DNA of 42,394 bases from Opitutia bacterium Tous-C1TDCM (GTDB taxonomy: Bacteria > Verrucomicrobiota > Verrucomicrobiia > Opitutales > Opitutaceae): the NCBI GenBank assembly GCA_002288455.1, contig NEUS01000021.1, positions 1-42,394 on the forward strand, read 5' to 3'. The position numbers and the translations under genes are program-made. Of this stretch, positions 8,063-32,318 are shown one piece after another; position 1 is the stretch's first letter; every line of letters starts with the position of its first letter. The notes beneath the pieces were generated by a model. That model was not told where the DNA came from. It saw only the letters and a list, made by a program, of their open reading frames with translations, and did not search any database.

Positions 8063-8111
8063 ATCCGGTTCGCCTCGGCCGATCTCTTGCCGCTGCGCCA
8101 AACTCCCGCAG

Positions 8112-8231
8112 TTGAGAGAATTTGGCTGAGAGTTAAGAGCGACACCGTTCGGTTCCGCACGAGGTGTAATCCAGTACCATCGTTCGCGCCTCGGCGGCTC
8201 GATCTCTCAACCCTCAACTCGTTGCTCTCAA
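8112..8231. repeat. Paired heptad-repeat element between convergent genes (locus A)
   Basis: Two inverted arms flank a 64-bp centre (8140-8203). The left arm (8112-8139) is four 7-bp units read on plus: TTGAGAG, a degenerate unit, CTGAGAG, TTAAGAG. The right arm (8204-8231), read on minus, is TTGAGAG, a degenerate unit, TTGAGGG, TTGAGAG. In both arms the second unit is the degenerate one, so the arms share an internal order as well as a period. The element fills the gap between the kinase stop (8062, plus) and the protease-like stop (8243, minus); each gene runs into a purine-rich arm on its own sense strand. Confidence 0.85.
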
Positions 8232-8242
8232 CTCCCCGCTGA

Positions 8243-9052
8243 TCAGGGCTTCGCCGCGCCTTCGGCCAGCGCCGCGGCCTGGGCCGTCGCCGCCTGCTTT
8301 GCCATATCGGCAATGTCCGCCGCGGGCAGCACGACGAGGCCCGTCCGGCGGCCCGCCGCAAAATGCTGCAGCGTGATCCCGAGCACCTTCCCGGCCGGAC
8401 TGAAAATCGGCGTGCCCGGCGACTGGTCCGTCATCAGGTAGAATCGCCGCGGCTTCTCGACGACGCCGAGCACCTCGGTCCGGCGCACCAACGGCACGCG
8501 TTGCAAGGTCTTCGGCGCCCGGGCCACGTAGAACAACTCGTCGAGCACACCGGCCTCCGCGGCCTCGGCCAAATTGACGAACGCGTACGTCTTGCCCGGC
8601 TCGTCGGTCGCCGGCGCCATGAACGCCAGATCGAGATCCGCATCTTTCAGGACGAAGCGCGCCGGCACTTCCTTGCCGTCGGCCAGCCGCAGTTTCACTT
8701 CCTTGAAATCGGAACCGACGATCTCCGCGCCGCGGGCGCCGCCCGCTCCCGCCCGCATCGCGTCGAGCGTCGCCTGCGGATCGACATCCGCCAAGGTCGT
8801 CACCGTGAGCCCGCTCGCCGAAATCACCGTGCCGTTGACCTCGATCCGCTGCTCGCGCGGCGGCATCTCGCGGTCGCCCATCTTGATCTTGAGGGTGACG
8901 ACCAGCTCGATGCCGACGACGGCGTCGGCATAGCGTTTGACCAGCGCCCGGCCCGTCGCGGCGTCCGTCGGCGCCGCCGCCTGGGCGACGGCCGGAAGCC
9001 CGGCGGCAAAGCACGCGGCGGCAATAAGTGCGATCGGAGTTTTGTAGGTCAT
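8243..9052 (-). CDS. Secreted trypsin-fold protein without catalytic His and Ser
   Basis: A 269-residue protein with a signal peptide (LIAAACFAAGLPAVAQA, cut after about residue 25). The remainder resembles the trypsin-like domain of HtrA proteases: NGTVISASGLTVTTLADV matches the strand that normally carries the catalytic His, and DQSPGTPIFSPAGKVLGI matches the loop that normally reads GNSGGP. Here the His position is Ala and the Ser-containing loop is shortened to SPGTPIF, so it should not cleave peptides. An Asp-containing motif (DADLDLAFMAPA) remains. Its ATG overlaps the TGA of the upstream four-PDZ protease by 4 nt, implying coupled translation and joint function. Likely a periplasmic partner, regulator or substrate-binding subunit of that protease. 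Fold assigned by motif comparison; role inferred. Confidence 0.75.
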   Translation of the reverse strand: MTYKTPIALIAAACFAAGLPAVAQAAAPTDAATGRALVKRYADAVVGIELVVTLKIKMGDREMPPREQRIEVNGTVISASGLTVTTLADVDPQATLDAMRAGAGGARGAEIVGSDFKEVKLRLADGKEVPARFVLKDADLDLAFMAPATDEPGKTYAFVNLAEAAEAGVLDELFYVARAPKTLQRVPLVRRTEVLGVVEKPRRFYLMTDQSPGTPIFSPAGKVLGITLQHFAAGRRTGLVVLPAADIADMAKQAATAQAAALAEGAAKP

Positions 9053-11100
9053 GATTTGATACGGGTCGGCTTGAGATTGATTTCGACGAAGAGCGTCTGC
9101 CCGCGGCGGCGCACCAGCAGCACCCACCAGTCCTTGCCGGCGGCGACGGCCGCATCGCGCGAACCTTTGAGATCCGCCAACGCGAGCACCGGCGACCCGC
9201 CGGCCTGTTCGACGATATCGTCGGCCCGCAGCCCCGCGAGGGAGGCCCAGCCGGCCGGCGCGGAACTCTCGACGAGCACGCCCGCCGCGGCGACCGGCAG
9301 TTGCAGGCGCACCCGGTCGTCGAAGGCGATTTCGCGCACGGAAAACTCCAGCTGGTAGTCGTTGTGCCAGGGCAATTCGGCCGCCGGCACCGGCTGTTCC
9401 TCGAGGATCACGGGCAGCTCCACTTTCTTGCCGTCGCGCCACAGCGAAAACGCCACTGTCGCGCCGTTCTTGTATTGCCGGATCTGGCGCGCGAGCACAT
9501 CGGTGTCCTCCGCGCGGCGGGCGGCGACTTCCGTGCCGTCGAGGGCCAAAATCACATCGCCCACCTGCAAGCCGGCCGCCTCCGCCTTCGTGCCGGGATA
9601 GATGCGCGTCAGCCGCGCCCCGCCCTCGGCCTTGAGGCCGAGACGCGCCGCCAGCTTCGGCGTCAACGGCTGCGACGCAGCGCCGAGCCACGCCTTGCGC
9701 ACCTGCGGCGTCGTGTTGCGGCTGTCTACGGCGCGCAACTCCACCACGGAACTGATCACGGCACCGTCGCGCCGCACGCTCGCGAGCACCGGCCGCACGC
9801 CCTTCGGCGCATTCTTCAGCAGGCGTTCGGTGAGCGCGCGCAACTCCGCGACGTTCGCCACCTTCTGGCCGTCGACGGACAACAGCACGTCTTCGCGCCG
9901 CAGCACGGGCTCGGCCTGGCCGCTCGGGCCGGAGGGCCGGATATTCTCGATCCAGACACCTTGCAGATCGGGCAAACGCTCGTCGCGGGCCACGCGCGGC
10001 GTGAGGTTGCGCACCACCGCGCCCCAACCCGTGACTTCGACGTCGTCGGCCTGGGCCGGCTCGCGCGGCGTCAGTTTCACCTTCGCGGTCTGCTTCGTCC
10101 CGGCCCGGAGAAATTCCAGCGCCACCTCCGCCCCCGGGACCTGCGCGGCCTCGAGGCGGTTGAAATGCGCGACCGCCTTTTCCTCCGCGCTCTCGATCGC
10201 CGTGCCGCCCACCGCGAGAATCAAATCGCCCGGCCGCAGCCCCGCGGCTTCCGCCGGCGCCCCCTTGGCCACGTCGCCGACCACCACGCCGCCGCCACCG
10301 CCGTCGGCCTCGAGCCGCGGTTGCACCGTGAGCCCGGACCAACCGCGGATCACGCGCCCGTCGCGGATGATGCTCTCCGCCACGCTGCGCGCGAGATTGC
10401 CGGGGATGGCCCCGCCGAGATTGAAGACGCCGATTTCGTTGATGCCGATGATCTCGCCCTTCGTGTTCACCAGCGGGCCGCCGCTGTTGCCGCCGAAGAT
10501 CTGGGCGTCGTGCAAAATCCAGCGCACGAGGGCGCCCACATTTTCGCCGCGCAGCAAAAAGCGCCCGGCGCTCTGCTCCGGCAGCACCATCGACGGATTC
10601 GCCACGACGCCGCGCGTCACCGACTGCGCCACGAAGCCCGGACTGCCGAGGGCGAAAACCACATCGCCGGCCGCCAGTTTGTCGGAATCGCCAAACGCCG
10701 TCACCACAAGCGGCGCCGCGTCCTTGGGCCGTTGCGTCAAGTCGAGTTTCAGCACGGCCAAGTCGGTCAACGCATCCTCGCCGACGCGCTTCGCGTCCAG
10801 GTGCGAGCCGTCGAACAGGTAGCAGCGGAAATAGTCGCCGTCCTCCGTCACGTGGCAGTTCGTCAGCACATGGCCGGCGGCCGAAATGATCACGCCGCTG
10901 CCGGCCGTCCATTGCTTCGTCAGCCGGCCGTCGCTGGGGCGGAGCCGGATGACCTCGATGCGGACGATGGAGGGAAACAATCGCGCCAGCATCGGATCGG
11001 TGGCGGCCGGAGCGGGCGCGGGTGCGGCGACCAGGGCCGGCAGCCCGACCGAACCCAAAATGAAGACAACGGCCGCGAGGCGACGGAAGGAGACAGGCAT
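9049..11100 (-). CDS. HtrA/DegP-like serine protease with four PDZ-type domains
   Basis: Periplasmic or surface-associated quality-control protease of 683 residues. A signal peptide spans about 1-26. The trypsin domain has His83 (LTNCHVTEDGD), Asp113 (LTDLAVLKLD) and Ser206 (FGGNSGGPLVN), a full catalytic triad. PDZ-like repeats follow at about 243-340 (AGLRPGDLILAVGG), 350-455 (LRREDVLLSVDGQ), 465-565 (AAGLQVGDVILALDG) and 575-680 (LAGLRADDIVEQAGG). Classical DegP has two PDZ domains, so this is an extended form. The TGA overlaps the start of the inactive protease-like gene. The leader just upstream of the ATG has a pyrimidine-rich 8-bp repeat instead of a Shine-Dalgarno sequence. Catalytic assignment is firm; substrates are unknown. 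Confidence 0.92.
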   Translation of the reverse strand: MPVSFRRLAAVVFILGSVGLPALVAAPAPAPAATDPMLARLFPSIVRIEVIRLRPSDGRLTKQWTAGSGVIISAAGHVLTNCHVTEDGDYFRCYLFDGSHLDAKRVGEDALTDLAVLKLDLTQRPKDAAPLVVTAFGDSDKLAAGDVVFALGSPGFVAQSVTRGVVANPSMVLPEQSAGRFLLRGENVGALVRWILHDAQIFGGNSGGPLVNTKGEIIGINEIGVFNLGGAIPGNLARSVAESIIRDGRVIRGWSGLTVQPRLEADGGGGGVVVGDVAKGAPAEAAGLRPGDLILAVGGTAIESAEEKAVAHFNRLEAAQVPGAEVALEFLRAGTKQTAKVKLTPREPAQADDVEVTGWGAVVRNLTPRVARDERLPDLQGVWIENIRPSGPSGQAEPVLRREDVLLSVDGQKVANVAELRALTERLLKNAPKGVRPVLASVRRDGAVISSVVELRAVDSRNTTPQVRKAWLGAASQPLTPKLAARLGLKAEGGARLTRIYPGTKAEAAGLQVGDVILALDGTEVAARRAEDTDVLARQIRQYKNGATVAFSLWRDGKKVELPVILEEQPVPAAELPWHNDYQLEFSVREIAFDDRVRLQLPVAAAGVLVESSAPAGWASLAGLRADDIVEQAGGSPVLALADLKGSRDAAVAAGKDWWVLLVRRRGQTLFVEINLKPTRIKS

Positions 11101-11107
11101 GGCAAAG

Positions 11108-11139
11108 AAAACGGAGAAACGGAAAACGCGGGAAACGGA
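11108..11139 (-). repeat. Octamer repeat in the leader of the PDZ protease gene
   Basis: Four consecutive 8-bp units on plus, three ending in AAACGGA (11109-11115, 11117-11123, 11133-11139) and a divergent third unit. In the mRNA this is a run of UCCGUUUC-like octamers ending 7 nt before the start codon, where a Shine-Dalgarno sequence would normally be. Confidence 0.55.
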
Positions 11140-11215
11140 GCGGAGCAGCGGGGACCGGCCGATTCGGCCAAGCGGCCGGGCCGGCCCCGCGGGTGGGACA
11201 CCGAGGGGCGGCGCG

Positions 11216-12799
11216 TTACGGCGCCTTGGCTTTGGCTTTCGCCTTGCCGGGATTCTTGGCGTTGTCCGGTCCCTTGGCGTTGGGGTTGCGGCCGCCGAGC
11301 CAGTGCGGCGGGATCACGTCCGGCACCTTCAGTTCGCGCCGCAGCCGCGCGAGGTCCGCCTCGAGCTGGCGCGTGGCCTCGGCATAGGCGGGTTGGCCGT
11401 AGACGCTGCGCATTTCCAAGGTGTCCTGCTGGCGATCGTACAATTCCCAATAGTCCTCACCCGTGCCGTAATAGCGGACCAGTTTGTAGCGGTCGGTGAC
11501 GACCCCGTAGTGCGGCCGCACGCGGTGCGGCGCCGGGTACTCGAAGTACTGGTAATAGAAAGCGCTGCGCCAATCGGCCGGCCGTTGCCCGCGCAGGATC
11601 GGCACGAAGCTGCGGCCCTGCATATCGGCGGGCGCCCGGGCCCCGGCTGCGTCGAGCAAGGTCTGCGCGAAGTCGACGTTGGAAACGAGATCCGCGGTCG
11701 CCGAGCCGGGCTTCGTCACGCCGGGCCAGCGCACGAGCAAAGGCATGCGGAGCGATTCCTCGAAGATCCAGCGTTTGTCGAACCAGCCGTGCTCGCCGAG
11801 GAAGAAACCCTGGTCGCTGGAGTAGACCACGATCGTGTTGTCGGCGAGGCCCTCCTTTTCGAGGTAATCGAGCACGCGGCCGACGCTCTCGTCGACGGCG
11901 CGGACCGTCATCAGGTAGTCGTGCATGTAGCGCTGGTAGCGCCACCGGACGAGGTCCTTGCCCTGCGGGTTGGCGGCGCGGAACTTGGCGTTGCGCGGTT
12001 CGTAGTAGGCGTCCCAGACCTTGCGTTGCTCGGGATCGAGCTGCGGCGGCGCTTCGAACTTCACGTCTTTCGGCGTCATGGTTTTCTCGATCGACATGTC
12101 CTGGTCGCGCACGGCAATGCCGCGGTTGGCGTAATCGTCGAACAGCGTCGGCGGCTCGGCGTAGACGCGGTCGCCGTCGCTGCCGAGGTGCCGCAGGGCC
12201 GGCGCCCATTCGCGATGCGGCGCCTTGTGCTGGGACATCAGGAGAAACGGTTTCGATTTGTCGCGGTTCTTGAGCCAGTCGAGCGAGACGTCGGTGATGA
12301 TGTCCGTGACATAGCCCTTAACCTGGATCCGTTCGCCCTGCCGGATCATCGGCGGGTTGTAGTACACGCCCTGGCCCGGAAGAATCTGCCAGAAATCGAA
12401 GCCGGTCGGATCGGAACCGAGGTGCCATTTGCCGACGAGGGCGGTCTGGTAGCCGGACTGCCGCAGCACCTTCGGCAACGTCACCTGGGACCCGTCGAAC
12501 AACGAATTGGAGTTGTTCATGAAGCCGTTCAGGTGGCTGTACTTCCCGGTGAGGATCGTGGCGCGCGAAGGGCCGCAGATCGAATTGGTCACGAGGCAGC
12601 GGTCGAAGCGCATGCCGCCCTTGGCGATGCGGTCGATGTTCGGCGTGGCGAGCAAACGGCGTTCGTCGCCGTAGGCGCTGATCGCCTGGTAGGCGTGGTC
12701 GTCCGAAAAGATGAAGACGATGTTGGGCGGCCCTTTCGGGGCGGCGGCGGACGCGGCGGACACAACCGCCAGACCGAGGGACAGGAGGACTGATTTCAT
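11216..12799 (-). CDS. Secreted type I sulfatase (arylsulfatase family)
   Basis: Hydrolyses sulfate esters, probably on polysaccharides, outside the cytoplasm. It has 527 residues with a signal peptide ([16 protein letters not shown], cut near residue 20). Metal-binding Asp33 and Asp34 are in FSDDHAY. The key motif [12 protein letters not shown] begins at Cys75, which a formylglycine-generating enzyme must convert; this defines the Cys-type sulfatases. GKWHLG and [19 protein letters not shown] are further active-site motifs. The C-terminus is a Lys/Ala tail. The frame extends upstream, but ATG at 12799 precedes the signal peptide and lies after a terminator, so it is the start. No anSME or FGE gene is visible here. 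Substrate cannot be read from sequence. Confidence 0.93.
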
Positions 12800-12839
12800 A
12801 GGGGCGTTGAAAAACGGCGCCGCCAGGGCCGGCGGCAGG

Positions 12840-12870
12840 CAAGAAAACACCGGCGCTGCGGGCGCCGGTG
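12840..12870 (-). terminator. Rho-independent terminator after the isomerase-like gene
   Basis: On minus, a perfect 9-bp stem CACCGGCGC/GCGCCGGTG with a 5-nt loop followed by TTTTCTTG. It lies between the isomerase-like stop (12883) and the sulfatase start (12799), so the two genes probably have separate transcripts. Confidence 0.85.
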
Positions 12871-12882
12871 CGGGGGGAGAAA

Positions 12883-13722
12883 TTACTTCTTCGCCGTTTG
12901 CGCGGCGAAGAACGTCTTGGCTTCGGCGACGAGCCGGTTGGGGTCTTCGGCGAAGGCCTTGCTGTCGGTCTCGATCGCCAGCACGCCGGACCAGCCGGAC
13001 TTTTTGATCTCGGCGAAGAGGCCGGCGTAGTTGGCCTTGCCCTTGCCGATCTCGGTGTCGGTCGCGACGATTTTGCCGTCGGCCGCGGCGGCGGTGACCT
13101 TGTCCTTGAAGTGCATGTCGAAGATGCGGTTCGCGCCGTAGGCGCGGAACGTCTCGGCGGCGTCGAAGCCGGCGGCGGTGACCCAGCCGACATCCATGCA
13201 CACGCCGATGCGCGGATCGCGTTCGGCGAGGATCTTTTTCACGGTGGCGGGATCGCCGTAGACGGTGCCCTTGCCGTGGTTGTGGATCGCGAGGCGGATG
13301 TCGTATTCCTTCACCAGGGCCTCGAGGTTGTCCCACTCGGCCATGTTCTTCGGCTCGACGACGATGACCTTGGCGCCGATGAGTTTCGCGAACTCGAAGA
13401 GCTTCCGGTTCTTCTCCTTGTCGGTGCTCGTGCCGGCGACGCCGAAGGTATAGGCGACGAGCCCGTGCTGATCGAGAATGGCCTTCTTGCGCAGCGTTTC
13501 TTCCTTCGGCGCGTTCGGGTCGAAGTGTTTCGCGATAAACTGGAGGTACTTGATCTCGTGCTTGCGCGCGAAGGCGACGACTTGGTCGAAGTCCATGTTG
13601 CGGCAGGTCCAGGTCTGGAGCCCGAGCGAGGGGCCCGCGGCCGGCGCGGCGTGAACACCGGAAGCCGCCAGCGAAATGACAAAAGCCGCCGCAGCGGCGC
13701 GAAGAAACGACAGGTAACGCAT
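12883..13722 (-). CDS. Secreted sugar phosphate isomerase/epimerase-like TIM barrel
   Basis: A 279-residue member of the xylose-isomerase-like TIM-barrel family. ATG at 13722 starts a signal peptide ([17 protein letters not shown]), so the protein is exported, which is common for this subfamily in Planctomycetes and Verrucomicrobiota. Barrel motifs include [12 protein letters not shown] (first strand), [29 protein letters not shown] and FDMHFKD; the Glu/His/Asp residues in these would bind a divalent metal. It precedes the sulfatase on the same strand, but a strong terminator separates them. The true substrate is unknown; a free sugar or keto-sugar is more likely than a phosphate ester outside the cytoplasm. 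Confidence 0.85.
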
Positions 13723-13973
13723 AGGGGGATTCGGAAGCTGCGCCACGCCCGACGCGCAGGCAAGCCGGCGGTGACGGAATTGCGGCCGGACTGCAGCGGG
13801 CGCGGCGGCAGCTCGGGAGGGGCGGCACCCGACACGGAGCGGTGAGGCTGGAAACCGAAGAAGCTTCACCGGCAGTTCAGTGCGGGAGAGGTACCCGACC
13901 GTGGAGGAAGTCAAAAGACCGGCCTGCGCCCCGTCGCTCCGATTGCCTCCCGATCAGGGCGCCTCGGTCCGCC

Positions 13974-14729
13974 ATGCCCAAAGAAATGCAAGGCGGTGAT
14001 TTTTTCGCTTCAACTGCAAAAGCTGCCTTGGCGAACTCCCGCCCCCAAACGCTCCAACCTCCACCGAAAAAGACCCTTTCACGCTGCCTTTCTTTGCTCC
14101 TGGTTTCGACGGCGTTCACCTGCCCCGCCCGCGCCGCCATCATCCGCACCACTTCGAATTTCACGCCGCGCATAGGCCAATCAGCCATGATCGATTTCGA
14201 TCAAAATGGAATCGCGGACCTGTTGCTCGACGTGGACGGGGGCGGCAATGTTTCCTTCAACGCGCGGGGCGAACCGGGCCCGACGAACTATGCGTAAGCG
14301 GTCCAGTTTGTGCATTCGGGGATCTACAATCCGCCCGTGAACTAAGGGGCCGGCGTCTCCATCGGCGGCGCTCTGCCGAGTGCATCCACGGGGTTTTTCC
14401 GGGCCTTTCTCGGCGGTACGGAGTACGGCAAGTTTGCCGACCGGCGCGGTTACGCCGCCGCCGTGATCCAAACCGGAACGTTCAGCCTCGGGAGCGGATT
14501 CTCGCTCCAGAACACCTACTACGGGTGGCTCGATCTTGAAGTGGATACGTCGTCCACAACCGAAACGCTGAAACTTTACGGTTGGGCTTTTGAGTCGACC
14601 GCCGGCGCGAGCATTTTGACCGGCGCAGGCGCGACGTCCGTGCCTGACTCGGCGAGTACTGCGGCCCCGGCCGGTCTCATGATGGCGGGACTGGCGATCT
14701 GCGGCCGACGCCGCCGGGCCCACGCCTGA
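13974..14729 (+). pseudogene. PEP-CTERM (VPDSA-type) exported protein, broken by two in-frame stops
   Basis: One continuous reading frame encodes a signal peptide (LSLLLVSTAFTCPARA), a region with IDFDQNGIADLLLDVDGG, a body with YYGWLDLEVDTSS and YGWAFESTAGASILTGA, and a C-terminal sorting signal VPDSASTAAPAG followed by a hydrophobic stretch and GRRRR (about 14638-14726). TAA codons at 14295-14297 and 14343-14345 interrupt it without any frameshift. The parts before and after the stops belong together: the body and sorting signal fit the PEP-CTERM surface or exopolysaccharide-associated proteins. The start is uncertain (ATG 13974 or 13986). Most likely a recently inactivated gene. Downstream initiation at 14463 would lack the signal peptide. 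Confidence 0.75.
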
Positions 14730-15050
14730 GTCCAAACCATGCCGCGTACTTTTCGACGGCGGCAGACCGCTGGTGGTTGGCTCATGACCAAGCCTGCCTG
14801 ACGTTTACTCCGATGGCTCAGAGGGCCGGTCGACCACGGGTGGACGGCCCCTCCGAATCCGAGGTCATGCGGTGAAGAGCTGAAAGCTGGGTCGAAGATC
14901 AATCTGAGGCGCGGAAACGCAGCCGCAGACCTCAGCCAGGGGAACCGATCGGTGCTGCTCTCAACTGGCAGCCAAGCCTGTTCAACGGAATCAGCTCGGC
15001 TCGGCCCAACGGAGTTTCCTGGCCCCAACCACCCTGATTTCCGTGAGCGC
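14730..15050. other. Gene-free stretch between the pseudogene and ftsH
   Basis: About 320 bp with no convincing frame or RNA. It contains an imperfect hairpin at 14821-14852 (15-bp arms with three mismatches, no T-tract) and a single CTGAAAG word near 14883 that resembles one unit of the heptad repeats but is not part of an array. Probably decayed 3' sequence of the pseudogene. Confidence 0.5.
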
Positions 15051-15079
15051 AAAAAAGGCGGCCCGCAAAGGGCCGCCTT
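15051..15079 (-). terminator. Rho-independent terminator after ftsH
   Basis: On minus, a perfect 10-bp stem AAGGCGGCCC/GGGCCGCCTT with a 5-nt loop, continuing into a run of T (plus-strand A at 15051-15056). It lies 22 nt after the ftsH stop and closes the serS-tilS-ftsH series. Confidence 0.9.
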
Positions 15080-15100
15080 GGAAAAACGGGACTGCCGGAC

Positions 15101-17107
<2,007 letters not shown>

Positions 17108-17154
17108 TTACGTTTGGGACTGAGGGCCGAACGTGGATGTTCCCCGGCGATAAG

Positions 17155-18192: not shown

Positions 18193-18238
18193 GGTCAGCG
18201 GAGCGGCGTCCGACCGCGGGGCGCGGATCCCTTCACGT

Positions 18239-19510: not shown

Positions 19511-19551
19511 AAACCGCGACCATGGCGGTCCGGCCCGGGGGAATAAACAGC

Positions 19552-19586
19552 AAAATTCGCCGGCCGGAAACGGCCGCGGCGCCCGC
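19552..19586 (-). terminator. Probable terminator between glycosyltransferase and serS
   Basis: On minus, just after the glycosyltransferase stop, a GC-rich hairpin with arms built from CGCCG/GGCCG and CGGCC/GGCG and a TTTC loop, followed by AATTTTG. The stem has a small bulge and the T-tract is short, so confidence is moderate. Confidence 0.5.
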
Positions 19587-19588
19587 GC

Positions 19589-20554: not shown

Positions 20555-20655
20555 GGCAACGGCGGGGCCAAGCGCTCCCGAGAATCTGCTTTCCCCCGCG
20601 GTCCGTTACGTTCCAAGGTCTTTCCCTCCGGAAATCAAAGCCAAATCCCGTCCGC

Positions 20656-22575: not shown

Positions 22576-22607
22576 TCGCCGTCGCGTCCGCCACCCGCCA
22601 CCTCCAC

Positions 22608-23582: not shown

Positions 23583-23596
23583 ACCGCGTCCCGTCC

Positions 23597-24580
<984 letters not shown>

Positions 24581-24587
24581 ATTCCCG

Positions 24588-24694
24588 GCGATAAGCCGGA
24601 AGCGATAAGCTGTAAGCTTTAAGCGGTCAGCATTCAGCCCAGCAGCTGAAGCCTTCAGCTTAAAGCTTTCCGCTTTCAGCTTACCGCTTACAGC
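24588..24694. repeat. Large heptad-repeat palindrome between convergent oppF and trmL (locus E)
   Basis: The longest example of the repeat. Seven 7-bp units on plus (24588-24636), each starting GC and mostly ending AA or CA (for example GCTGTAA at 24609-24615), lead to a central palindrome GCTGAAG-C-CTTCAGC (24645-24659). Six units in the opposite orientation follow without a break (24653-24694). The unit at 24688-24694 contains the TAA stop of trmL. Shifted by one base, the minus-strand units include CTGAAAG and CTGAAGG, which match the units at 31526-31553. The arms can form a long, imperfect, in-register hairpin and may end both transcripts. Confidence 0.9.
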
Positions 24695-25164
24695 CCCTGA
24701 TTTCTTCCGTGCGTCAACTGTCGCACCGCTTCATAGCATGCGATCCCGGCCGCCGTGCTGAGATTGAGGGAACGCAATCCGGGATTCGCATGCGGGATCA
24801 TCACGCGGCCCTCCGCCAATTCGTCGTGCAGCCACTCGGGCGCACCGGAGCCTTCGTTGCCAAAGACCAATCCGTCGCCATCCGCATAGCGCACGTCCCA
24901 AAAACTGCGTTCCGTCTTCGTCGTGAAGAGCCAGAGCCGGCCCGGCGGCGCCGCCGGACTTTGCCGGAAGGCGGTCCAATCCGCATGCTCGTGAACGTCC
25001 AGCGACTTCCAGTAATCCATGCCCGCGCGCCGCAGGTTCCGGTCGTTGATCACGAAGCCCAGCGGATGAATCAGGTGCAGCCGCGACCGGGTGAGCGCGC
25101 ACATGCGGCCGACATTCCCGGTGTTGGGCGCGATTTCCGGCTGGAAAAGGACAACGTGGACCAT
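24688..25164 (-). CDS. trmL: tRNA (cytidine/uridine-2'-O-)-methyltransferase TrmL
   Basis: SpoU-type (SPOUT) methyltransferase that 2'-O-methylates the wobble base 34 of certain tRNA-Leu. It has 158 residues, the normal size. The N-terminal VVLFQPEIAPNTGNVGRMC and the trefoil-knot SAM-binding motifs LVFGNEGSGAPEW and RSLNLSTAAGIACYEA are diagnostic. The TAA stop lies inside the first unit of the heptad array at 24688-24694, so the last codons GGG CTG are followed directly by the repeat. Divergent from the CheY-like gene at 25263. Confidence 0.94.
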   Translation of the reverse strand: MVHVVLFQPEIAPNTGNVGRMCALTRSRLHLIHPLGFVINDRNLRRAGMDYWKSLDVHEHADWTAFRQSPAAPPGRLWLFTTKTERSFWDVRYADGDGLVFGNEGSGAPEWLHDELAEGRVMIPHANPGLRSLNLSTAAGIACYEAVRQLTHGRNQGL

Positions 25165-25262
25165 CGCCGCAACCTTTTCGCGTCCCGTCCGTGAAGCAAG
25201 GCGGGCCTCGCGCGTTGCATATTCGCAAATCGTTGGCCAGCGTCCGCCATCCCTTCCCCACC

Positions 25263-25685
25263 GTGCCCGCCGCCGTGAAATCGATCGTCTTTGTCGACGA
25301 CGAAGCGCCCTACACCGAGCTCATGTCCATGATGCTCGCCCACCACCTCGGGTGCCCCGTCCACAGTTTCACCCACCCCACCCAAGCCCTCGCCCACCTC
25401 GCCGGCCTCGACGCTGCCGTGATCGTCACCGACTACCATATGCCGCAACTCGACGGCATCGCCTTCATCCGGGAAGCCGCGAAGCTCGCGCCGGCGGCGG
25501 TGTTCGTGATGATCACCGGCCACAACCTCGCCGCCGAAGAGGACAACCTTTGCCGGCTCGGGCGGCTGAAGGGCTTTCTCTCGAAACCGTTCGGTTGGCG
25601 GATTCTCGCCGAGGAAATCGTCCGGGTCTGGCCCGATCCCGCGACTCGGCCCAGCCTCAGTTCGGCTTCCCTGCCGGCGGGCTGA
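25263..25685 (+). CDS. Single-domain response regulator (CheY-like)
   Basis: A stand-alone receiver domain of 140 residues. The acidic pair is Asp12/Asp13 (FVDDE), the phospho-acceptor is Asp57 (VIVTDYHMP), the switch Thr is in MITGHN and Lys108 is in LSKPF, so it should accept phosphate. No output domain is present. The frame is open upstream to 25191, but homology starts at about 25275; GTG 25263 and GTG 25275 are both possible starts. No kinase lies next to it; the hybrid kinase at 6506 is 17 kb away. It probably works by protein-protein contact in a phosphorelay. Confidence 0.85.
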   Translation: MPAAVKSIVFVDDEAPYTELMSMMLAHHLGCPVHSFTHPTQALAHLAGLDAAVIVTDYHMPQLDGIAFIREAAKLAPAAVFVMITGHNLAAEEDNLCRLGRLKGFLSKPFGWRILAEEIVRVWPDPATRPSLSSASLPAG

Positions 25686-25710
25686 CCTAGTTAAGGCAGA
25701 TCGGCGCCGC

Positions 25711-26187
25711 TCAACGCCGCCGCAACTTCATCGCCTGGTCGACCTCGCGCTCGACGACCTTCGTTTTCAGGTCCTCGCGGCGGTCGTGCAGTTTCTTGCC
25801 CGTGCAGAGGGCAACTTCCACCTTCACGAGGGCTTCCTTGAAATACATGCGCAGCGGCACCAGCGCCCGGCTGCCGCCCGCGTCGAGCGCCGCCTTGATC
25901 TTGTCGATGTGGCGGCGGTGCAGGAGCAGTTTGCGGATGCGCTTCGCGTCGTGGTTGTGGATGTTGCCGAACGCGTACTGCTCGATGTGGGCGTTGTAGA
26001 GCCAGACCTCGCCTTTCTCGATCCGGCCGAACGCATCCGTGATCTGCGCCTTGCCGGCGCGGATCGACTTCACCTCGGTGCCGCGGAGCTGGATCCCGGC
26101 CTCGAACCGCTCGTCCACGAAGTAATCGCGCCCCGCCTTCGCGTTGCGGATCTCGGTGAAGCGTTTGGAATCTTTGGCGGCGGCCAT
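25711..26187 (-). CDS. smpB: SsrA-binding protein SmpB
   Basis: Binds tmRNA and brings it to stalled ribosomes for trans-translation. It has 158 residues, normal length. Diagnostic segments are GIQLRGTEVKSIRAGKAQI, WLYNAHIEQYAFGN, RKLLLHRRHIDKI and the basic C-terminal tail that inserts into the mRNA channel (EVDQAMKLRRR). GxGK-type KEALVKVEVALCTGKKLHD is also typical. It follows rpoZ on minus but is separated from it by a terminator. The start is preceded by pyrimidine-rich sequence without a Shine-Dalgarno motif. Confidence 0.96.
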   Translation of the reverse strand: MAAAKDSKRFTEIRNAKAGRDYFVDERFEAGIQLRGTEVKSIRAGKAQITDAFGRIEKGEVWLYNAHIEQYAFGNIHNHDAKRIRKLLLHRRHIDKIKAALDAGGSRALVPLRMYFKEALVKVEVALCTGKKLHDRREDLKTKVVEREVDQAMKLRRR

Positions 26188-26213
26188 GGACGGGAAGGGC
26201 GGAAACCGGAGGC

Positions 26214-26257
26214 AAAAAAAAGCGGCTCCGAAACTGCCTCAAGCAGAACGGGGCCGC
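26214..26257 (-). terminator. Rho-independent terminator after rpoZ
   Basis: On minus, an interrupted stem with outer GCGGC/GCCGC and an inner CTGC/GCAG pairing, followed by eight T (plus-strand A 26214-26221). It lies 31 nt after the rpoZ stop and upstream of smpB. Confidence 0.75.
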
Positions 26258-26288
26258 CGGAATTGGCAAACGTCGGTGCGCGCGCGAA

Positions 26289-26483
26289 TCAGGCCAGCTC
26301 GTGGCTGATCTTGCCTTCGATGACCTCGCGGAGCGCGGTATCCTCGGGCGAAAGCTTCTCCAGCGACTCGACGAGCGGGCGATTGCCCCGCTTGAGCTGT
26401 TTCACGCGGCGTGAAACCACGTTGATCAGGATGTTCGGATCGCTGATCGATTTGAGCGCTTCTTTGATGTAGTCGTCTCTCAT
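26289..26483 (-). CDS. rpoZ: RNA polymerase omega subunit
   Basis: Small subunit that assists assembly and stability of RNA polymerase and can mediate ppGpp sensing. It has 64 residues from ATG at 26483. The core motif NILINVVSRRVKQLKRGNRP is the conserved omega signature (NxxxLVxxxSRRxRQL), and the later ALREVIEGKISHEL matches the C-terminal helix. It is shorter than E. coli omega (91 residues) but within the range of Verrucomicrobiota and Chlamydiae-related forms. The gene diverges from cutA across a 117-bp gap that must hold both promoters. Confidence 0.88.
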   Translation of the reverse strand: MRDDYIKEALKSISDPNILINVVSRRVKQLKRGNRPLVESLEKLSPEDTALREVIEGKISHELA

Positions 26484-26600
26484 GGCGGGCAAACAGCTGG
26501 GTGAAAACCGTTGAAAGCAACGACGGCGTTCCTGAACGTCAAGGGCGAATTCCCGGCGCCGCTCCCGCCTGCTTCTCCCCCTTCCCCTTCCCATCTCGCC

Positions 26601-26921
26601 ATGTACCTTGCCTGGACCACTGTCGGCGACCGCGCCGATGCCGACCGCCTCGCCGGTGCCGCCGTCGCCGCCGGTCTTGCCGCCTGCGTGCAGATCGAGG
26701 GTCCGGTCACCTCGGTGTATCGCTGGGCCGGCCGGATTGAAACGGCGGCGGAGTACCGCCTCACCTTCAAGGTGATTCCCGCGCGCCTCGCCGCCCTCGA
26801 AGCCCAGGTCCTCGCGGCCCATCCCTACACAACTCCGGAATGGATCGTCGCCCGCGCCGAACTCGTTGCGGAAAAATACTTGTCATGGGCACAGGCGAAC
26901 TCTAGCCCTCTGCCCCTTTAG
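26601..26921 (+). CDS. cutA: Divalent-cation tolerance protein CutA
   Basis: Trimeric cytoplasmic protein of the CutA1 family, linked to copper tolerance though its biochemical role is unsettled. It has 106 residues with the family pattern: TTVGDRADADRLA, LAACVQIEGPVTSVYRW (Cys29), a Glu-containing strand EYRLTFKVIPARL and AAHPYTTPEWI. The frame extends upstream to 26511, but ATG at 26601 matches the usual CutA start. The following small-protein gene starts 28 nt after the stop, so the two may be co-transcribed. Confidence 0.92.
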   Translation: MYLAWTTVGDRADADRLAGAAVAAGLAACVQIEGPVTSVYRWAGRIETAAEYRLTFKVIPARLAALEAQVLAAHPYTTPEWIVARAELVAEKYLSWAQANSSPLPL

Positions 26922-26949
26922 CAAGTCGCAGCCCTCTCTTTATAAAACC

Positions 26950-27105
26950 ATGTCACAGCACAAAAGCCTCCAAGGTGCCAACGGTCTCGTCGTCAAACGC
27001 AACGTCCTGAAGCGCTTCGAGCGCGTCGACCTGCTCAAGAAGCGCGGCCAGTGGAAGGTCGGCGACCGCATCCAAGGTCTGCGCAAGACCAAGCCCGACG
27101 TCTGA
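26950..27105 (+). CDS. Small basic protein, Chlamydiae/Verrucomicrobia family (TIGR04137-like)
   Basis: A 51-residue protein from ATG at 26950: MSQHKSLQGANGLVVKRN, then VLKRFERVDLLKKRGQWK and a short tail with RKTKPDV. It matches my memory of the small basic protein family TIGR04137, restricted to Chlamydiae, Verrucomicrobiota and relatives and thought to contact the ribosome or rRNA. The basic composition and single-gene transcript with a very strong terminator suggest high expression. The leader contains TATAAA (26941-26946), which could be a -10 element, but no clear -35 is visible. It supports the phylum assignment. Its precise function is not established. Confidence 0.85.
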   Translation: MSQHKSLQGANGLVVKRNVLKRFERVDLLKKRGQWKVGDRIQGLRKTKPDV

Positions 27106-27122
27106 GTTTTTTCGCCCTTCCC

Positions 27123-27154
27123 GGCAGGCAGTCTCCGCTGCCTGCCTTTTTTTT
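27123..27154 (+). terminator. Strong rho-independent terminator after the small basic protein
   Basis: Perfect 9-bp stem GGCAGGCAG/CTGCCTGCC with a 6-nt loop, followed by eight T. It starts 17 nt after the stop. The best canonical terminator in the window. Confidence 0.95.
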
Positions 27155-27191
27155 GCCCGCTTCCCAACCTTCGTCTCCGCTTTCCCCGCCC

Positions 27192-27860
27192 ATGATCGAT
27201 CTGATCAAAAAGCTCATCGACTTCATCATCCACATCGACCGCCACCTGGCGGAGATCATCGCCGACTACGGCCTGTGGACCTATGCGGTGCTCTTTCTGA
27301 TCATCTTCGCGGAAACCGGTCTCGTCGTGACGCCGTTTTTGCCCGGTGACTCGCTGCTCTTCGCCGCCGGCGCCTTCTGCGCCAAGCCCGAGACCGGCCT
27401 CAACGTCCACCTCATGGCCGGCCTGCTCTTCGTCGCCGCGGTCATCGGCGACACCTTGAATTATTGGATCGGCGCCAAACTCGGACCCGCCGTCTTCAAG
27501 CGCGACGATTCGATTTTCCTGCGCAAAAAGCACCTCGAGCGCGCCCACGCCTTCTTCGAAAAATACGGCGGCCGCGCCATCATCCTCGCCCGCTTCGTGC
27601 CCATCGTGCGCACCTTCGTGCCCTTTGTCGCCGGCGTCGGCTCGATGACCTACTCGCGTTTCCTCGCCTACAATATCATCGGCGGCTTCATCTGGATCTA
27701 TTTCTTCATCTACGCCGGCTTCTGGTTCGGCAACCAGCCGTTCGTGCAGAAGAACTTCAAGCTCGTGATCCTCGCGATCATCATCCTCTCCGTCGTCCCG
27801 ATCGTCTGGGAAATGTGGCGCGCCTGGCGCGAAAACAAGGCCGAGAAAAAGTCCGCCTGA
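27192..27860 (+). CDS. DedA family membrane protein
   Basis: Integral membrane protein of the DedA/SNARE-associated (VTT-domain) family; members flip or transport undecaprenyl phosphate and other lipids and support envelope homeostasis. It has 222 residues from ATG at 27192. Motifs are FAETGLVVTPFLPGDSLLF (the conserved E and re-entrant loop with PGD), IGDTLNYWIGAKLG, GGRAIILARFVPIVRTFVP (family signature with R and the FxP pattern) and several hydrophobic helices, ending in a basic cytoplasmic tail. The full set of conserved charged residues is present. Single gene, flanked by terminators upstream and repeats downstream. Confidence 0.93.
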   Translation: MIDLIKKLIDFIIHIDRHLAEIIADYGLWTYAVLFLIIFAETGLVVTPFLPGDSLLFAAGAFCAKPETGLNVHLMAGLLFVAAVIGDTLNYWIGAKLGPAVFKRDDSIFLRKKHLERAHAFFEKYGGRAIILARFVPIVRTFVPFVAGVGSMTYSRFLAYNIIGGFIWIYFFIYAGFWFGNQPFVQKNFKLVILAIIILSVVPIVWEMWRAWRENKAEKKSA

Positions 27861-27896
27861 GCCACCCGCCGCGGTCGGACCGCCATCGAAACGCCG

Positions 27897-27925
27897 CGCC
27901 GGCCGCAAATCCGCCGGCCGAAATC
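27897..27925. repeat. Tandem 14-15 bp repeat downstream of the DedA gene
   Basis: CGCCGGCCG followed by CAAATC (27897-27911) and again CGCCGGCCG followed by AAATC (27912-27925). The GC cores are self-complementary, so the pair can fold into a hairpin that may end the DedA transcript. Short and possibly fortuitous in GC-rich DNA. Confidence 0.4.
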
Positions 27926-27951
27926 ACCTTCCGCCGGTTCACCGAGCCGAA

Positions 27952-27968
27952 GCCCCGCCAAGCGGGGC
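27952..27968. terminator. Hairpin just downstream of tRNA-Arg
   Basis: Perfect 7-bp stem GCCCCGC/GCGGGGC with a 3-nt loop, 6 nt beyond the 3' end of the tRNA on minus. No T-tract follows, so it may act as a processing or termination signal for the tRNA transcript or as the end of the DedA transcript. Confidence 0.4.
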
Positions 27969-27974
27969 GAAGGC

Positions 27975-28049
27975 TGGTGCGAGCGCCGGGAGTCGAACCC
28001 GGATCGACGGCTTCGGAGACCGCTACACTATCCATTGTGCTACGCCCGC
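27975..28049 (-). tRNA. tRNA-Arg (anticodon CCG)
   Basis: A 75-nt cloverleaf with encoded CCA. The acceptor stem GCGGGCG pairs with CGCTCGC (one G-T), D-arm stem GCAC/GTGT, anticodon stem GCGGT/GCCGT with loop CTCCGAA giving anticodon CCG (reads CGG), a 4-nt variable loop and T-arm CCGGG-TTCGACT-CCCGG. The discriminator base is A, as expected for tRNA-Arg in bacteria. CGG is a sensible codon for this GC-rich genome. Confidence 0.95.
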
Positions 28050-28160
28050 GTGATCCAGCTGAACGGGCATGAAGGGTGGCCCGGCCCGGGTCGTCAAGCC
28101 CGCGCACCGGCGAAGTGAATCGTTGCGTCGCGTCGCGCCGTTTTCCAACGTCCCCTCCCT

Positions 28161-29957
<1,797 letters not shown>

Positions 29958-30004
29958 ACGCGGCCCGCCGCGTTGCCTTCCGCCCCGTTGCTTCCGCCCG
30001 GCCC

Positions 30005-30691
30005 ATGGACGACCCGATCCCGCCGCTCGATCCCGTCGCCGTTCGCGTGCTCGGCGCCCTCGTCGAGAAACAGCTCACGACGCCGGACTACTATCCGCTC
30101 ACGCTCAACGCCCTCGTCAACGCCTGCAACCAGCTCTCCAACCGCGAGCCGGTCATGGACCTCGACGAAACCGCCGTCCTCCGCGCGATCGGCGTCCTGC
30201 GCGAGCACCGGCTCGCGACGCTGTTCACCGGGGCCGAAAGCCGCGTCGCAAAATACAAGCACACGTTGACCGACGCCCTGCTCCTCACGCCCGGCGAAGT
30301 CGCTTTGCTTTGCGTTCTCTTCCTCCGCGGCCCGCAGACCCTCGGCGAACTGCGCCCGCGCACCGAGCGTATCTTCCGTTTCGATACCTTGCCGGAAACC
30401 GAGGCCGCCCTCGCCGTCCTCGCGGAACGGCAACCGCAGCCCCTCGTCGCGAAACTGCCCCGCGCCCCCGGCACCAAGGAATCGCGCTACGCCCACCTCT
30501 TCGGCGGCCCCGTCGAGGTCGTGGACTCAAGATCGGCGCCCGCCCCGGCGGCTCTCATCGCGTCCCCTCTGGCTCCGGTCCCCGCCGCCGCCGACCGCCT
30601 CGCCCGCCTCGAAACCGAGGCCGTCGCCCTCCGCGCCGAATTGGCCGAACTCAAAGCCGAGTTCGCCCGCTTCCGCGCGCAGTGCGATTGA
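30005..30691 (+). CDS. YceH/DUF480 family winged-helix protein
   Basis: A 228-residue protein of the UPF0502 (DUF480) family. It starts at ATG 30005, 47 bp after glnS. The family pattern is clear: LDPVAVRVLGALVEKQLTTP, YYPLTLNALVNACNQLSNREP, then a second winged helix with LTPGEVALLCVLFLRGPQTLGEL. A coiled segment (RLARLETEAVALRAELAELK) ends the protein, as in E. coli YceH. The two winged helices suggest DNA binding, but the function of the family is not settled. Its nearness to glnS on the same strand suggests co-transcription. Confidence 0.9.
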   Translation: MDDPIPPLDPVAVRVLGALVEKQLTTPDYYPLTLNALVNACNQLSNREPVMDLDETAVLRAIGVLREHRLATLFTGAESRVAKYKHTLTDALLLTPGEVALLCVLFLRGPQTLGELRPRTERIFRFDTLPETEAALAVLAERQPQPLVAKLPRAPGTKESRYAHLFGGPVEVVDSRSAPAPAALIASPLAPVPAAADRLARLETEAVALRAELAELKAEFARFRAQCD

Positions 30692-30738
30692 ATCGAATCA
30701 CACCCCGGTGACCGCCGCCCCTGCGCGGCTCGCCGCCG

Positions 30739-31425
30739 TCAGGCCGCCGGTTCGCCGGCGGGGCCCGCCCCGCGGTTACCCGGACTGAGCACCCGGTACT
30801 TCAGGTGCGAAACTCCGGGGCCGGCCAGGGTCCGGACAAGTTCGAGGCTCACGTTTTCATCCGCGACGCGGTCGAGCAGGCGCTCGCCGCCCCCGAGCAA
30901 AATCGGCACGACGTGCAGTTCCAGTTCGTCCAGCAATCCCGCCGCCAGGAACTGCTGCACGGTCCGCGCCCCGCCGGCAAGATTCACGTCCCGGTCGCCC
31001 GCCGCCACCCGGGCCTGCTCGAGCGCGGAAGCGATACCGTCAGTCACAAAATGAAACGTCGTGCCGCCCGCCATGACGAGCGGCGCCCGCGCGTGATGCG
31101 TCAGCACGAACACCGGATGCCCGTACGGCGGCGTCTCGCCCCACCACCCGCGCCACGGATTTTCGCCCCAGGGCCCGCGGACCGGGCCGAACATATTCCG
31201 CCCCATCACGGTCGCGCCGACGTGCGCGAACATCTCGCGCATCACATCGTCGTTCACCCCGGTTTCGCCGCCGGCGCCGCCGAGCATCGCCCGGAACGTA
31301 CGGGTCGGAAACACCCATTCGTGCAGACGCCGCGCGCCTTCGCCGAGCGGGTTGGCCGCGCTTTGGTTCGGCCCGGCGGCATAGCCGTCGAGCGAGATCG
31401 TGATACTGCAACGGAGTTGTCCCAT
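30739..31425 (-). CDS. Dihydrofolate reductase/RibD C-terminal domain protein
   Basis: A 228-residue single-domain protein of the RibD_C/DHFR-like superfamily, probably an NADPH-dependent reductase. The N-terminus MGQLRCSITISLDGYAAGPNQS, the central GATVMGRNMFGPVRGPWG and PVFVLTHHARAPLVMAGGTTFHFV, and the late VNLAGGARTVQQFLAAGLLDELELHVVPILLGGGERL follow the family closely. Stand-alone members are often YyaP/YwjB-type enzymes of unknown substrate; it is not a true folate DHFR. ATG at 31425 has a pyrimidine-rich leader. A heptad array and the SRPBCC gene lie upstream on the same strand. Confidence 0.9.
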   Translation of the reverse strand: MGQLRCSITISLDGYAAGPNQSAANPLGEGARRLHEWVFPTRTFRAMLGGAGGETGVNDDVMREMFAHVGATVMGRNMFGPVRGPWGENPWRGWWGETPPYGHPVFVLTHHARAPLVMAGGTTFHFVTDGIASALEQARVAAGDRDVNLAGGARTVQQFLAAGLLDELELHVVPILLGGGERLLDRVADENVSLELVRTLAGPGVSHLKYRVLSPGNRGAGPAGEPAA

Positions 31426-31525
31426 GGGCGGAAGCGAGTCGGATGTTTGCGGCCCTGGCTAAGAAATCGCCCGGGATGCCGATGCGGCGGGCAGAGCCTT
31501 GTCCGCCCCATCTCGGCATTCCGGT

Positions 31526-31553
31526 CTTTCAGCTTTCAACCTTCACCTTTCAA
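31526..31553 (-). repeat. Heptad-repeat array downstream of the SRPBCC gene (locus C)
   Basis: Four contiguous 7-bp units; on minus they read TTGAAAG, GTGAAGG, TTGAAAG, CTGAAAG in transcription order. The array begins 14 nt after the SRPBCC stop (31568-31570). Between them is GGGGCTGA-type sequence that resembles the junction at the trmL stop, with the TGA stop lying inside a GCTGAAC word. Only one arm is present. Confidence 0.85.
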
Positions 31554-31567
31554 CCGCGTTCAGCCCC

Positions 31568-32014
31568 TCAGGCCGGGATCTCCGGCTCCACCAACCGCGC
31601 AAGTTGGACCAGCGAATCCTGCCAACCCAGATAGCACATTTCCGCCGGAATCACGGCCGGCACGCCCGCCTGCACGACGGTAAGTTCGGTGCCGCAACTT
31701 ACCTTGGTCAGCGTCACCGTCACTTCGATCACTCCCGGCAGATTCGGATCGTCGAACTTGTCCGTGTAGCGGAGCCGCTCGTTCGGCACCAATTCAAGAT
31801 AGGTCCCGCCGAAGGCATGGGAATTGCCGCTCGCGAAATGCGTGAACGACATGCGGAACGTGCCGTCGACCTTCGCTTCGAGATGCTCGATCGCCGCCGT
31901 GAAACCATAAGGCGGCAACCACCGGCACATCGCCGCCGGTTCAAGAAAGGCCCGGTAGATTTTTTCCGGCGGGGAACGCAACACACGGTGCAGGCGGATG
32001 GTATGGGTGGACAT
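31568..32014 (-). CDS. SRPBCC (AHSA1/START-like) domain protein
   Basis: A 148-residue protein of the activator-of-Hsp90-ATPase-like START superfamily with a helix-grip fold. Typical motifs are HRVLRSPPEKIYRAFLEPAA, CRWLPPYGFTAAIEHLEAKV, GGTYLELVPNERLRYTDKF and a C-terminal helix GWQDSLVQLARLVEPE. Such proteins bind hydrophobic ligands; most bacterial members have no known substrate. ATG at 32014 is followed by the usual short lead-in. It is transcribed toward the RibD/DHFR-like gene, with a heptad array directly after its stop. An inverted repeat (CGCG-AAAA-CGCG core, 32031-32054) lies about 17 bp upstream of the start and may be a regulator site. Confidence 0.9.
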   Translation of the reverse strand: MSTHTIRLHRVLRSPPEKIYRAFLEPAAMCRWLPPYGFTAAIEHLEAKVDGTFRMSFTHFASGNSHAFGGTYLELVPNERLRYTDKFDDPNLPGVIEVTVTLTKVSCGTELTVVQAGVPAVIPAEMCYLGWQDSLVQLARLVEPEIPA

Positions 32015-32128
32015 AGGAAAGGGTGCGATCGGACGCGCGAAAACGCGTTTGTCCCATCCCGACGAAACAACCGTCGGCCGCCGGACACCGCCACCGCATT
32101 TTTCGCCGCCACCCCGATCGGAGTTAAT

Positions 32129-32275
32129 TCATACGGCTTGCCGGGCACTCCCCGCCCACGGGCCGCTGCCCCTCGGCAACCGCACCGTAAACGTTGCGCC
32201 CCGGTCCACCGCGCTCGCCGCGGCGAGGGTTCCGCCGTGGGCCTCGACGATGGCCTGCGAAATCGACGGATCGAT
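32129..32275 (-). pseudogene. Histidine kinase C-terminal remnant
   Basis: On minus, a short frame ending at TGA (32129-32131) encodes SISQAIVEAHGGTLAAAS and ATFTVRLPRGSG, the end of an HATPase_c domain just after the G2 box. In an intact kinase this follows GTGLGL; here the preceding residues are IDP, encoded by sequence at the edge of a heptad-repeat element. Everything upstream (sensor, HisKA, N and G1 boxes) is gone. The breakpoint and the repeat coincide. It is not a copy of the kinase at 6506, whose tail reads differently. Non-functional. Confidence 0.8.
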
Positions 32276-32303
32276 CTCTCAACCCTCAACTTTCGGCTCT
32301 CAG
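32276..32303 (-). repeat. Single-arm heptad element at kinase breakpoint (locus D)
   Basis: Four 7-bp units; on minus CTGAGAG, a degenerate unit, TTGAGGG, TTGAGAG, the same order as the right arm of locus A (8204-8231). A 21-bp stretch (32271-32291) is identical to 8199-8219, including 5 bp beyond the array. It starts 15 nt after the stop of the gene at 32319 and ends at the truncated histidine kinase. Confidence 0.85.
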
Positions 32304-32318
32304 CTGCAAGATTCCGGC

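What the first reader, a model, noticed from the sequence alone, without database searches (positions are those of the whole stretch)
8112..32303. A family of sense-oriented 7-bp repeats placed directly after stop codons
Four intergenic sites (8112-8231, 24588-24694, 31526-31553, 32276-32303) contain contiguous 7-bp units with rough consensus YTGARAG. There are six arms. In every one, the purine-rich strand is the sense strand of the gene that ends just before it, at distances from inside the stop codon to about 50 nt. Where genes converge, each has its own arm and the arms form an imperfect palindrome with 7-bp register. Fixed placement and orientation suggest action as 3' RNA: termination, RNA stability or a landing array for a modular RNA-binding protein. 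Heptamer STRR repeats are known in cyanobacteria; I know of no description in Verrucomicrobiota.
Basis: partly seen in the sequence, partly recalled or inferred. Interest (0 to 1): 0.75.

Follow-up and report, generated by a model that had tools for sequence, protein, structure and literature searches.

The report
Seven-base repeats flanking and inside genes
Short blocks of seven-base repeats in a family of environmental bacteria behave like tiny inserted DNA elements: one strand stops translation in every reading frame and so sits outside genes, the other can be read through inside genes, and this together with their mirror-image pairing can explain most of their striking placement beside genes without a special RNA role.

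Summary
The arrays are real and far beyond chance. The wider comparison changes its meaning. The unit is mostly a four-heptamer block, (CTCTCAA)x4-CT, usually preceded by CCG, alone or as an inverted pair; 27 of 57 genomes searched have matches. In other genera it lies inside genes (40 of 48 arrays sampled in G030, 26 of 92 in G029) or just before starts. All 72 intragenic arrays sampled in four genomes are antisense: the purine strand carries TGA in every frame, the other reads LSTLNSQ in every frame. Empty sites show insertion: a 157-bp gap in G000 against 25 bp in G007 between the same convergent genes, and an insertion in dnaE. A pair caught between genes puts purine arms after stops and pyrimidine arms before starts. 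RNA function is not excluded: pairs fold well, and convergent array ends have fewer intrinsic terminators (2 of 49 against 25 of 165, p 0.049, pooled). Verdict: a new REPIN-like family of very small dispersed repeats without REP tag or detected RAYT link; mobiliser unknown.

The parts
8076..8248 (-). Site 1: copy of the longer paired repeat E1 between convergent genes 6506-8062(+) and 8243-9052(-)
   Evidence: nhmmer match 8237-8080, E 3.9e-17; alignment of 15 copies; folds, z -3.0
8110..8139 (+). Site 1 left arm: purine strand sense to gene 6506-8062; second unit is AATTTGG
   Evidence: inverted repeat I1, 73% complementary
8204..8233 (-). Site 1 right arm: purine strand sense to gene 8243-9052
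   Evidence: the relative G007 has a differently flavoured array at the same place
14857..15017 (+).
   Evidence: nhmmer E 4.8e-13; alignment read by eye
24587..24624 (+). Site 2 left arm (TAAGC-type heptamers), sense to gene 23597-24580
   Evidence: inverted repeat I1, 76% complementary; pair folds with z -6.95
24652..24693 (-). Site 2 right arm, sense to gene 24688-25164; the stop TAA lies inside its first unit
   Evidence: array scan
31526..31553 (-). Site 3: single four-unit arm, 14 nt after the stop of gene 31568-32014(-)
32276..32303 (-). Site 4: single four-unit arm, 15 nt after the stop of gene 32319-33974(-)
32240..32327 (-). Half copy of E1 containing the site 4 arm
   Evidence: nhmmer E 1.1e-11 to the first 93 positions of the query

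Best explanation
The arrays are copies of a very small dispersed insertion element. The monomer is about 35 bp: CCGT or similar, four CTCTCAA-type heptamers, CT. Two monomers in inverted orientation (purine arm, loop, pyrimidine arm) make a paired element, and in the G000/G007 lineage one such pair, E1, has multiplied with its loop. Shown: copy number, shared block, empty sites, lineage-limited E1, antisense-only orientation inside genes. Inferred: how placement arises. (1) The purine strand of the array holds TGA in all three frames, so it is excluded from coding sense, while the pyrimidine strand is open in all frames and tolerated as an LSTLNSQ linker. (2) A pair caught in a short gap presents a purine arm to an upstream stop and a pyrimidine arm to a downstream start; decay of one arm leaves a single arm. 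(3) Divergent gaps are depleted because promoters lie there. The mobilising enzyme is unknown.
For: Shared block: flank profiles of G000, G029 and G030 arrays all end in CT and share CCG before the core (strong in G030, weaker in G000, weak in G029). Length: with three units allowed, 30 of 47 G000 arrays have exactly four (8 have three, 8 five, 1 eight). Empty sites: the gap at L042 11559-11717 is 157 bp in G000 and 25 bp in G007, with flanking genes about 90% identical; in dnaE 12 of 30 aligned family loci have no residues between FTPV and the next motif where G000 and G013 carry the array (polymerase III alpha by NCBIfam). E1: 37 matches in G000, 30 in G007, 0 in the 55 other genomes, 0 with the reversed pattern. 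Antisense inside genes: 1, 5, 26 and 40, together 72 of 72. In G013 dnaE a whole pair is present and the second purine unit reads TCA where TGA is usual; the frame is open. Outward rule: 37 of 41, 65 of 76, 6 of 8, 59 of 66. In gaps with one arm of each kind the order was always purine then pyrimidine (14 of 14 used for pairing; 15 RY signatures and no YR).
Against: G029 single arms in tandem gaps are nearly all pyrimidine-sense (32 against 3), not the even split that simple arm loss predicts; G000 (8 and 5) and G007 (11 and 7) fit better. In G029 only 16 of 20 arms within 30 nt of a stop are sense. Most intragenic arrays are single, so the pair is not the only form that moves. At MutS the array sits in place without length change in seven genomes, read by eye, and at RlmD in a linker of variable length, neither a clean insertion. 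No mobiliser was found; I looked for no target-site duplication. Arrays longer than four units exist (for example a contig-end run of 14 in G000). Purine arms close to stops are so regular in G000 and G007 that selection may add to it. The gene caller is home-made.
Confidence: 0.62

Rival explanations
1. A selected 3' RNA element: the purine arm, alone or paired with a downstream pyrimidine arm, ends transcription, protects the mRNA 3' end or slows the terminating ribosome, and the fixed spacing after stops is kept by selection.
For: 29 of 30 and 44 of 45 arms within 30 nt of a stop are sense in G000 and G007. Divergent gaps with arms: 1 of 47 and 0 of 50, convergent 19 of 44 and 26 of 50. Pairs fold well (z -6.95, -3.0, -2.4). 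Convergent array ends have fewer intrinsic terminators, pooled 2 of 49 against 25 of 165, p 0.049. Four of 42 orthologous ends keep an array in both species (plus site 1 by eye in 75).
Against: About half of the sense arms lack a partner; own partners match no better than foreign ones, 0.828 against 0.831; over all ends terminators are not rarer (8 of 81 against 66 of 464, p 0.38); in G029 the convergent preference is absent (7 of 46 against 5 of 50, p 0.54); arrays inside genes and before starts need another cause.
Confidence: 0.22
2. Heptamer microsatellites grown by slippage and kept where they do no harm, as proposed for other heptanucleotide repeats.
For: A seven-base period; some long runs; heptamers are the commonest class of such repeats in many genomes according to the passage on Mrazek's work in PMC4679880.
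Against: Mostly four units with shared flanking bases; whole paired blocks absent in relatives; in G000 units within an array share the A or G flavour (28 of 39 against 5.0 expected), though G029 shows no excess (82 against 82.4) because nearly all are G-type.
Confidence: 0.08
3. A polar DNA signal oriented along the replication arms (like KOPS or Chi), placed by selection.
For: The purine strand is on the locally G-rich strand in 48 of 48 G030 arrays and 68 of 81 in G029; in G030 all 45 listed matches run in long blocks of one strand with two exceptions.
Against: 24 of 32 in G000; pairs hold both orientations; G007 matches are mixed along a 1.8-Mb contig in the partial list; local skew is confounded by gene direction; strand-biased insertion would look the same.
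Confidence: 0.04

Closest known systems
REP elements and REPINs (REP doublets), GTAG and CGTC families; O. terrae is reported rich in GTAG REPs, also inside uvrA (PMC3733652: abstract, section 15 and passages seen; PMC3116915: abstract seen)
   Same: Short, high copy, single or inverted doublets, mostly after genes and between convergent genes, termini that can supply the stop codon, insertions in repair genes.
   Different: Arm is a heptamer array without self-pairing and without the GTAG or CGTC tag; no array in 30 Y1-transposase loci; GTAGGGCG words are a separate repeat in G029.
TAACTGA heptamer repeats of Beggiatoaceae and others (PMC4679880: abstract and passages seen)
   Same: Heptamer direct repeats, intergenic, one strand with stops in all frames and the other open.
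   Different: Other sequence; there mostly before start codons; no inverted pairs stressed, 'one indirect repeat' in the abstract; variable unit number.
Rickettsia palindromic elements, RPE (through PMC3733652; otherwise recalled)
   Same: Small repeats inserted in frame in protein genes.
   Different: Not heptamer-based; here a single strand is readable in all frames.
STRR heptanucleotide repeats and very small mobile repeats (SDR) of cyanobacteria (recalled, papers not held)
   Same: Degenerate heptamers (STRR); mobile-looking units of about 20-30 bp without a known transposase (SDR).
   Different: Combination of heptamers, fixed block, inverted pairs and stop-codon polarity in Opitutaceae.

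Membership tests
REP / REPIN | single unit folds as a short stem-loop | tested here: not met
   four single arms fold at 0 to -3 kcal/mol, no better than shuffles
REP / REPIN | GTAG or CGTC tag at one end | tested here: not met
   flank profile shows CCG(T) and CT in three genomes
REP / REPIN | inverted doublets as a unit | tested here: met
   purine-then-pyrimidine pairs, E1 multiplied as a pair, but many single arms
REP / REPIN | link to a RAYT (Y1 transposase) | tested here: inconclusive
   0 of 30 Y1 loci of about 3 kb hold an array; Spearman 0.19 (p 0.26) over the 37 family genomes, 0.47 (p 0.00025) over all 57; other Y1 matches not inspected
RPE-like intragenic element | in-frame insertion into conserved protein genes, empty site in relatives | tested here: met
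   dnaE; only three genes were aligned, MutS and RlmD were not clean insertions
STRR / microsatellite | unit number varies by slippage | tested here: inconclusive
   mostly four units, some longer; no strain-level data
MITE | terminal inverted repeats with target-site duplication and an autonomous partner | not tested
   E1 has inverted ends; duplication and partner not examined
intrinsic transcription terminator | hairpin followed by a T run | tested here: not met
   terminator-like sites at 4 of 27, 4 of 39 and 0 of 15 array ends

The most novel reading that the evidence does not exclude
A mobile repeat for which the period of seven is itself the adaptation. Because seven is not a multiple of three, one strand encodes the same heptapeptide (LSTLNSQ) in every frame and the other stops translation in every frame, so a single 28-bp block can enter genes in any frame on one strand and cap gene ends on the other. 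It spreads by a route other than the known RAYT system and has entered core genes (dnaE, uvrA, miaB, gluQRS) across the Opitutaceae.
Probability: 0.33. Interest if true: 0.72.

Novelty: new variant of a known kind. Interest (0 to 1): 0.55.

Why it matters
If true, it is among the smallest dispersed elements that add peptides to core replication and repair proteins, in a phylum where my searches found no account of these arrays. It gives a testable explanation, from reading frame and pairing alone, of a placement that looks like regulation, and it poses a clear question: what moves a block of about 35 bp.

Tried and rejected
Rfam, window plus five stretches: only a tRNA. RNAalifold on the mixed E1 alignment: 3 pairs only. 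Plasmids: no match. Single-class gene callers left G030 coding at 0.67 and called few genes on the G-rich strand; placement counts rest on the three-class caller. The reversed-pattern control (652 against 740) is no control, since a reversed heptamer array is nearly the same array. Considered and not tested: pyrimidine strand as a Rho loading site; fail-safe stop codons. GTAG words: separate repeat, 7 of 59 in G029 near arrays against 2.9 expected, 0 in G000, G007, G030.
Full report
Observation. The four sites and six arms exist as described. YTGARAG x3 with up to 3 mismatches matches the window 7 times against 0 in 100 shuffles; 382,758 bp of this genome (window plus 20 stretches chosen around matches) hold 47 arms against 0 or 1 in each of 20 shuffles.

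Host. G029 has 5,957,605 bp, which I recall as Opitutus terrae PB90-1.

Longer unit. Site 1 is a copy of a dispersed repeat, E1: an end with TGAGCCGGGATCATGCAG, four heptamers, ATCGATCC, a loop ending AACGGTTTTG, an inverted arm whose second unit is AGCTTGG, and an inverted end. A 30-base piece finds 37 copies in G000, 30 in G007, none in 55 other genomes, none with the reversed pattern.

Distribution. Four units with up to 2 mismatches: 27 of 57 genomes, own included, and 8 of 31 genera; counts are uneven (228 in G007, 201 in G013, 183 in G000, 123 in G029, 0 in 30; overlapping matches counted).

Placement in the window's genus. With a three-class codon gene caller, the G000 sample has 39 arms, 38 intergenic, 30 sense to the upstream gene; random intergenic placement gives 44% sense and 15% sense within 60 nt, observed 26 of 38 within -10 to 60. 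An independent sample of G007 (394,845 bp around matches) has 62 arms, 57 intergenic, 45 sense. Within 30 nt of a stop 29 of 30 and 44 of 45 are sense. Gaps with arms in G007: convergent 26 of 50, tandem 23 of 135, divergent 0 of 50; in G000 19 of 44, 15 of 130, 1 of 47; in G029 7 of 46, 48 of 236, 5 of 50, no convergent preference. In 8 of 45 G007 cases the distances (-4, -11, -18) are those of a stop supplied by the array's own TGA.

Placement elsewhere. In G030 40 of 48 and in G029 26 of 92 sampled arrays are inside genes, all antisense. In G029 many others lie 3-12 nt before a start with the pyrimidine strand sense, some with a purine arm just after the upstream stop. The general rule is that the purine strand points away from the gene it abuts: 37 of 41, 65 of 76, 6 of 8 and 59 of 66. 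Arms lie closer to gene ends than random placement in the same gaps in G000 and G029 (median 15 against 28 and 12 against 31), not in G030.

Why the strand rule. A TTGAGAG run has TGA in each frame and CTCTCAA reads LSTLNSQ in each frame. All 72 intragenic arrays in the four samples are antisense, in all three phases in G029 and G030. Host genes include DNA polymerase III alpha, UvrA, MutS, RlmD, MiaB and GluQRS by NCBIfam. In G013 dnaE a whole pair is present; its second purine unit reads TCA and the frame is open. MacGregor made the same stop-codon argument for TAACTGA (PMC4679880, abstract and passages).

Why the 3' placement. A purine-loop-pyrimidine pair reads the same on both strands, so in any gap it sets a purine arm after an upstream stop and a pyrimidine arm before a downstream start. 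The clean empty site is L042 11559-11717: 157 bp with a pair in G000, 25 bp in G007, flanks about 90% identical. Loss of one arm leaves singles: in tandem gaps 8 purine-sense and 5 pyrimidine-sense in G000, 11 and 7 in G007, but 3 and 32 in G029. Leaders before starts are pyrimidine-rich with hardly any Shine-Dalgarno-like words (3%, 8%, 8% against controls of 9%, 6%, 10%), which may favour that orientation.

Function tests. Pairs fold well, four single arms do not. 14 of 29, 22 of 43 and 9 of 17 sense arms pair downstream beyond the 5% control level. Own arms match no better than arms of other sites (0.828 and 0.831; 14 pairs, 102 mismatched). Terminator-like sites: 4 of 27 array ends against 23 of 122, 4 of 39 against 19 of 129, 0 of 15 against 24 of 213, none significant; pooled over convergent ends 2 of 49 against 25 of 165, p 0.049, and over all ends p 0.38. 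So RNA effects are possible but not shown to be the cause of placement.

Turnover. Of 42 orthologous 3' ends in hand for G000 and G007, the script scored arrays in both at 3, in one at 3, in neither at 36; one of the one-sided, site 1, has arrays of different flavour in both on inspection. At site 2 G007 has another flavour and five further relatives show no array, by eye. G000 arrays keep one flavour across units (28 of 39, 5.0 expected); G029 shows no excess.

Mobiliser. Y1 transposases (PF01797) occur in 42 of 57 genomes; within the family counts do not follow arrays (Spearman 0.19, p 0.26), over all 57 they do (0.47), and 0 of 30 inspected loci hold an array.

Known work. Di Nocera 2013 (PMC3733652: abstract, section 15, passages) reports GTAG REPs in O. 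terrae with similar placement, including uvrA; the present unit lacks tag and self-pairing. Passages of PMC12306157 cite work that REPs under 16 nt from a stop lower translation, a distance also common here. I found no account of these arrays in Verrucomicrobiota in searches (open-licence papers; figures and supplements not seen).

Verdict. Best reading: a new REPIN-like family of heptamer-built small dispersed repeats whose strand and position follow largely from stop codons and pairing.

Noticed in passing
window 27978-28049: tRNA gene on the minus strand (Rfam tRNA, 62.9 bits).
   Followed up: no
L236-L273 (G030): Very strong local GC skew, up to 0.38 in 12-15-kb stretches, with two codon-usage classes that defeat a single-class gene caller.
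   Followed up: partly
G000, G029, G030 gene starts: Shine-Dalgarno-like words are at or near background before start codons and leaders are pyrimidine-rich.
   Followed up: partly
window 15040-15100: Ordinary hairpin plus T-run terminator after gene 15101-17035(-), kept in G007, with similar ones in other relatives; the E1 copy lies beyond it.
   Followed up: no
L041 5000-9300 and L042 3011-3070: Other short repeats in gaps: GGGACGGAT-like nine-base runs and ATCGGGAAA-like runs next to heptamer arms.
   Followed up: no
G000:C31:135-232, G007:C1:535-618: Long exact CTGAGAG runs (14 and 12 units) close to contig ends.
   Followed up: no
L231 5167-7734, L276, L294 and others: In MutS the array occupies the same place in seven genomes without length change, as if shaped in place or very old.
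   Followed up: partly
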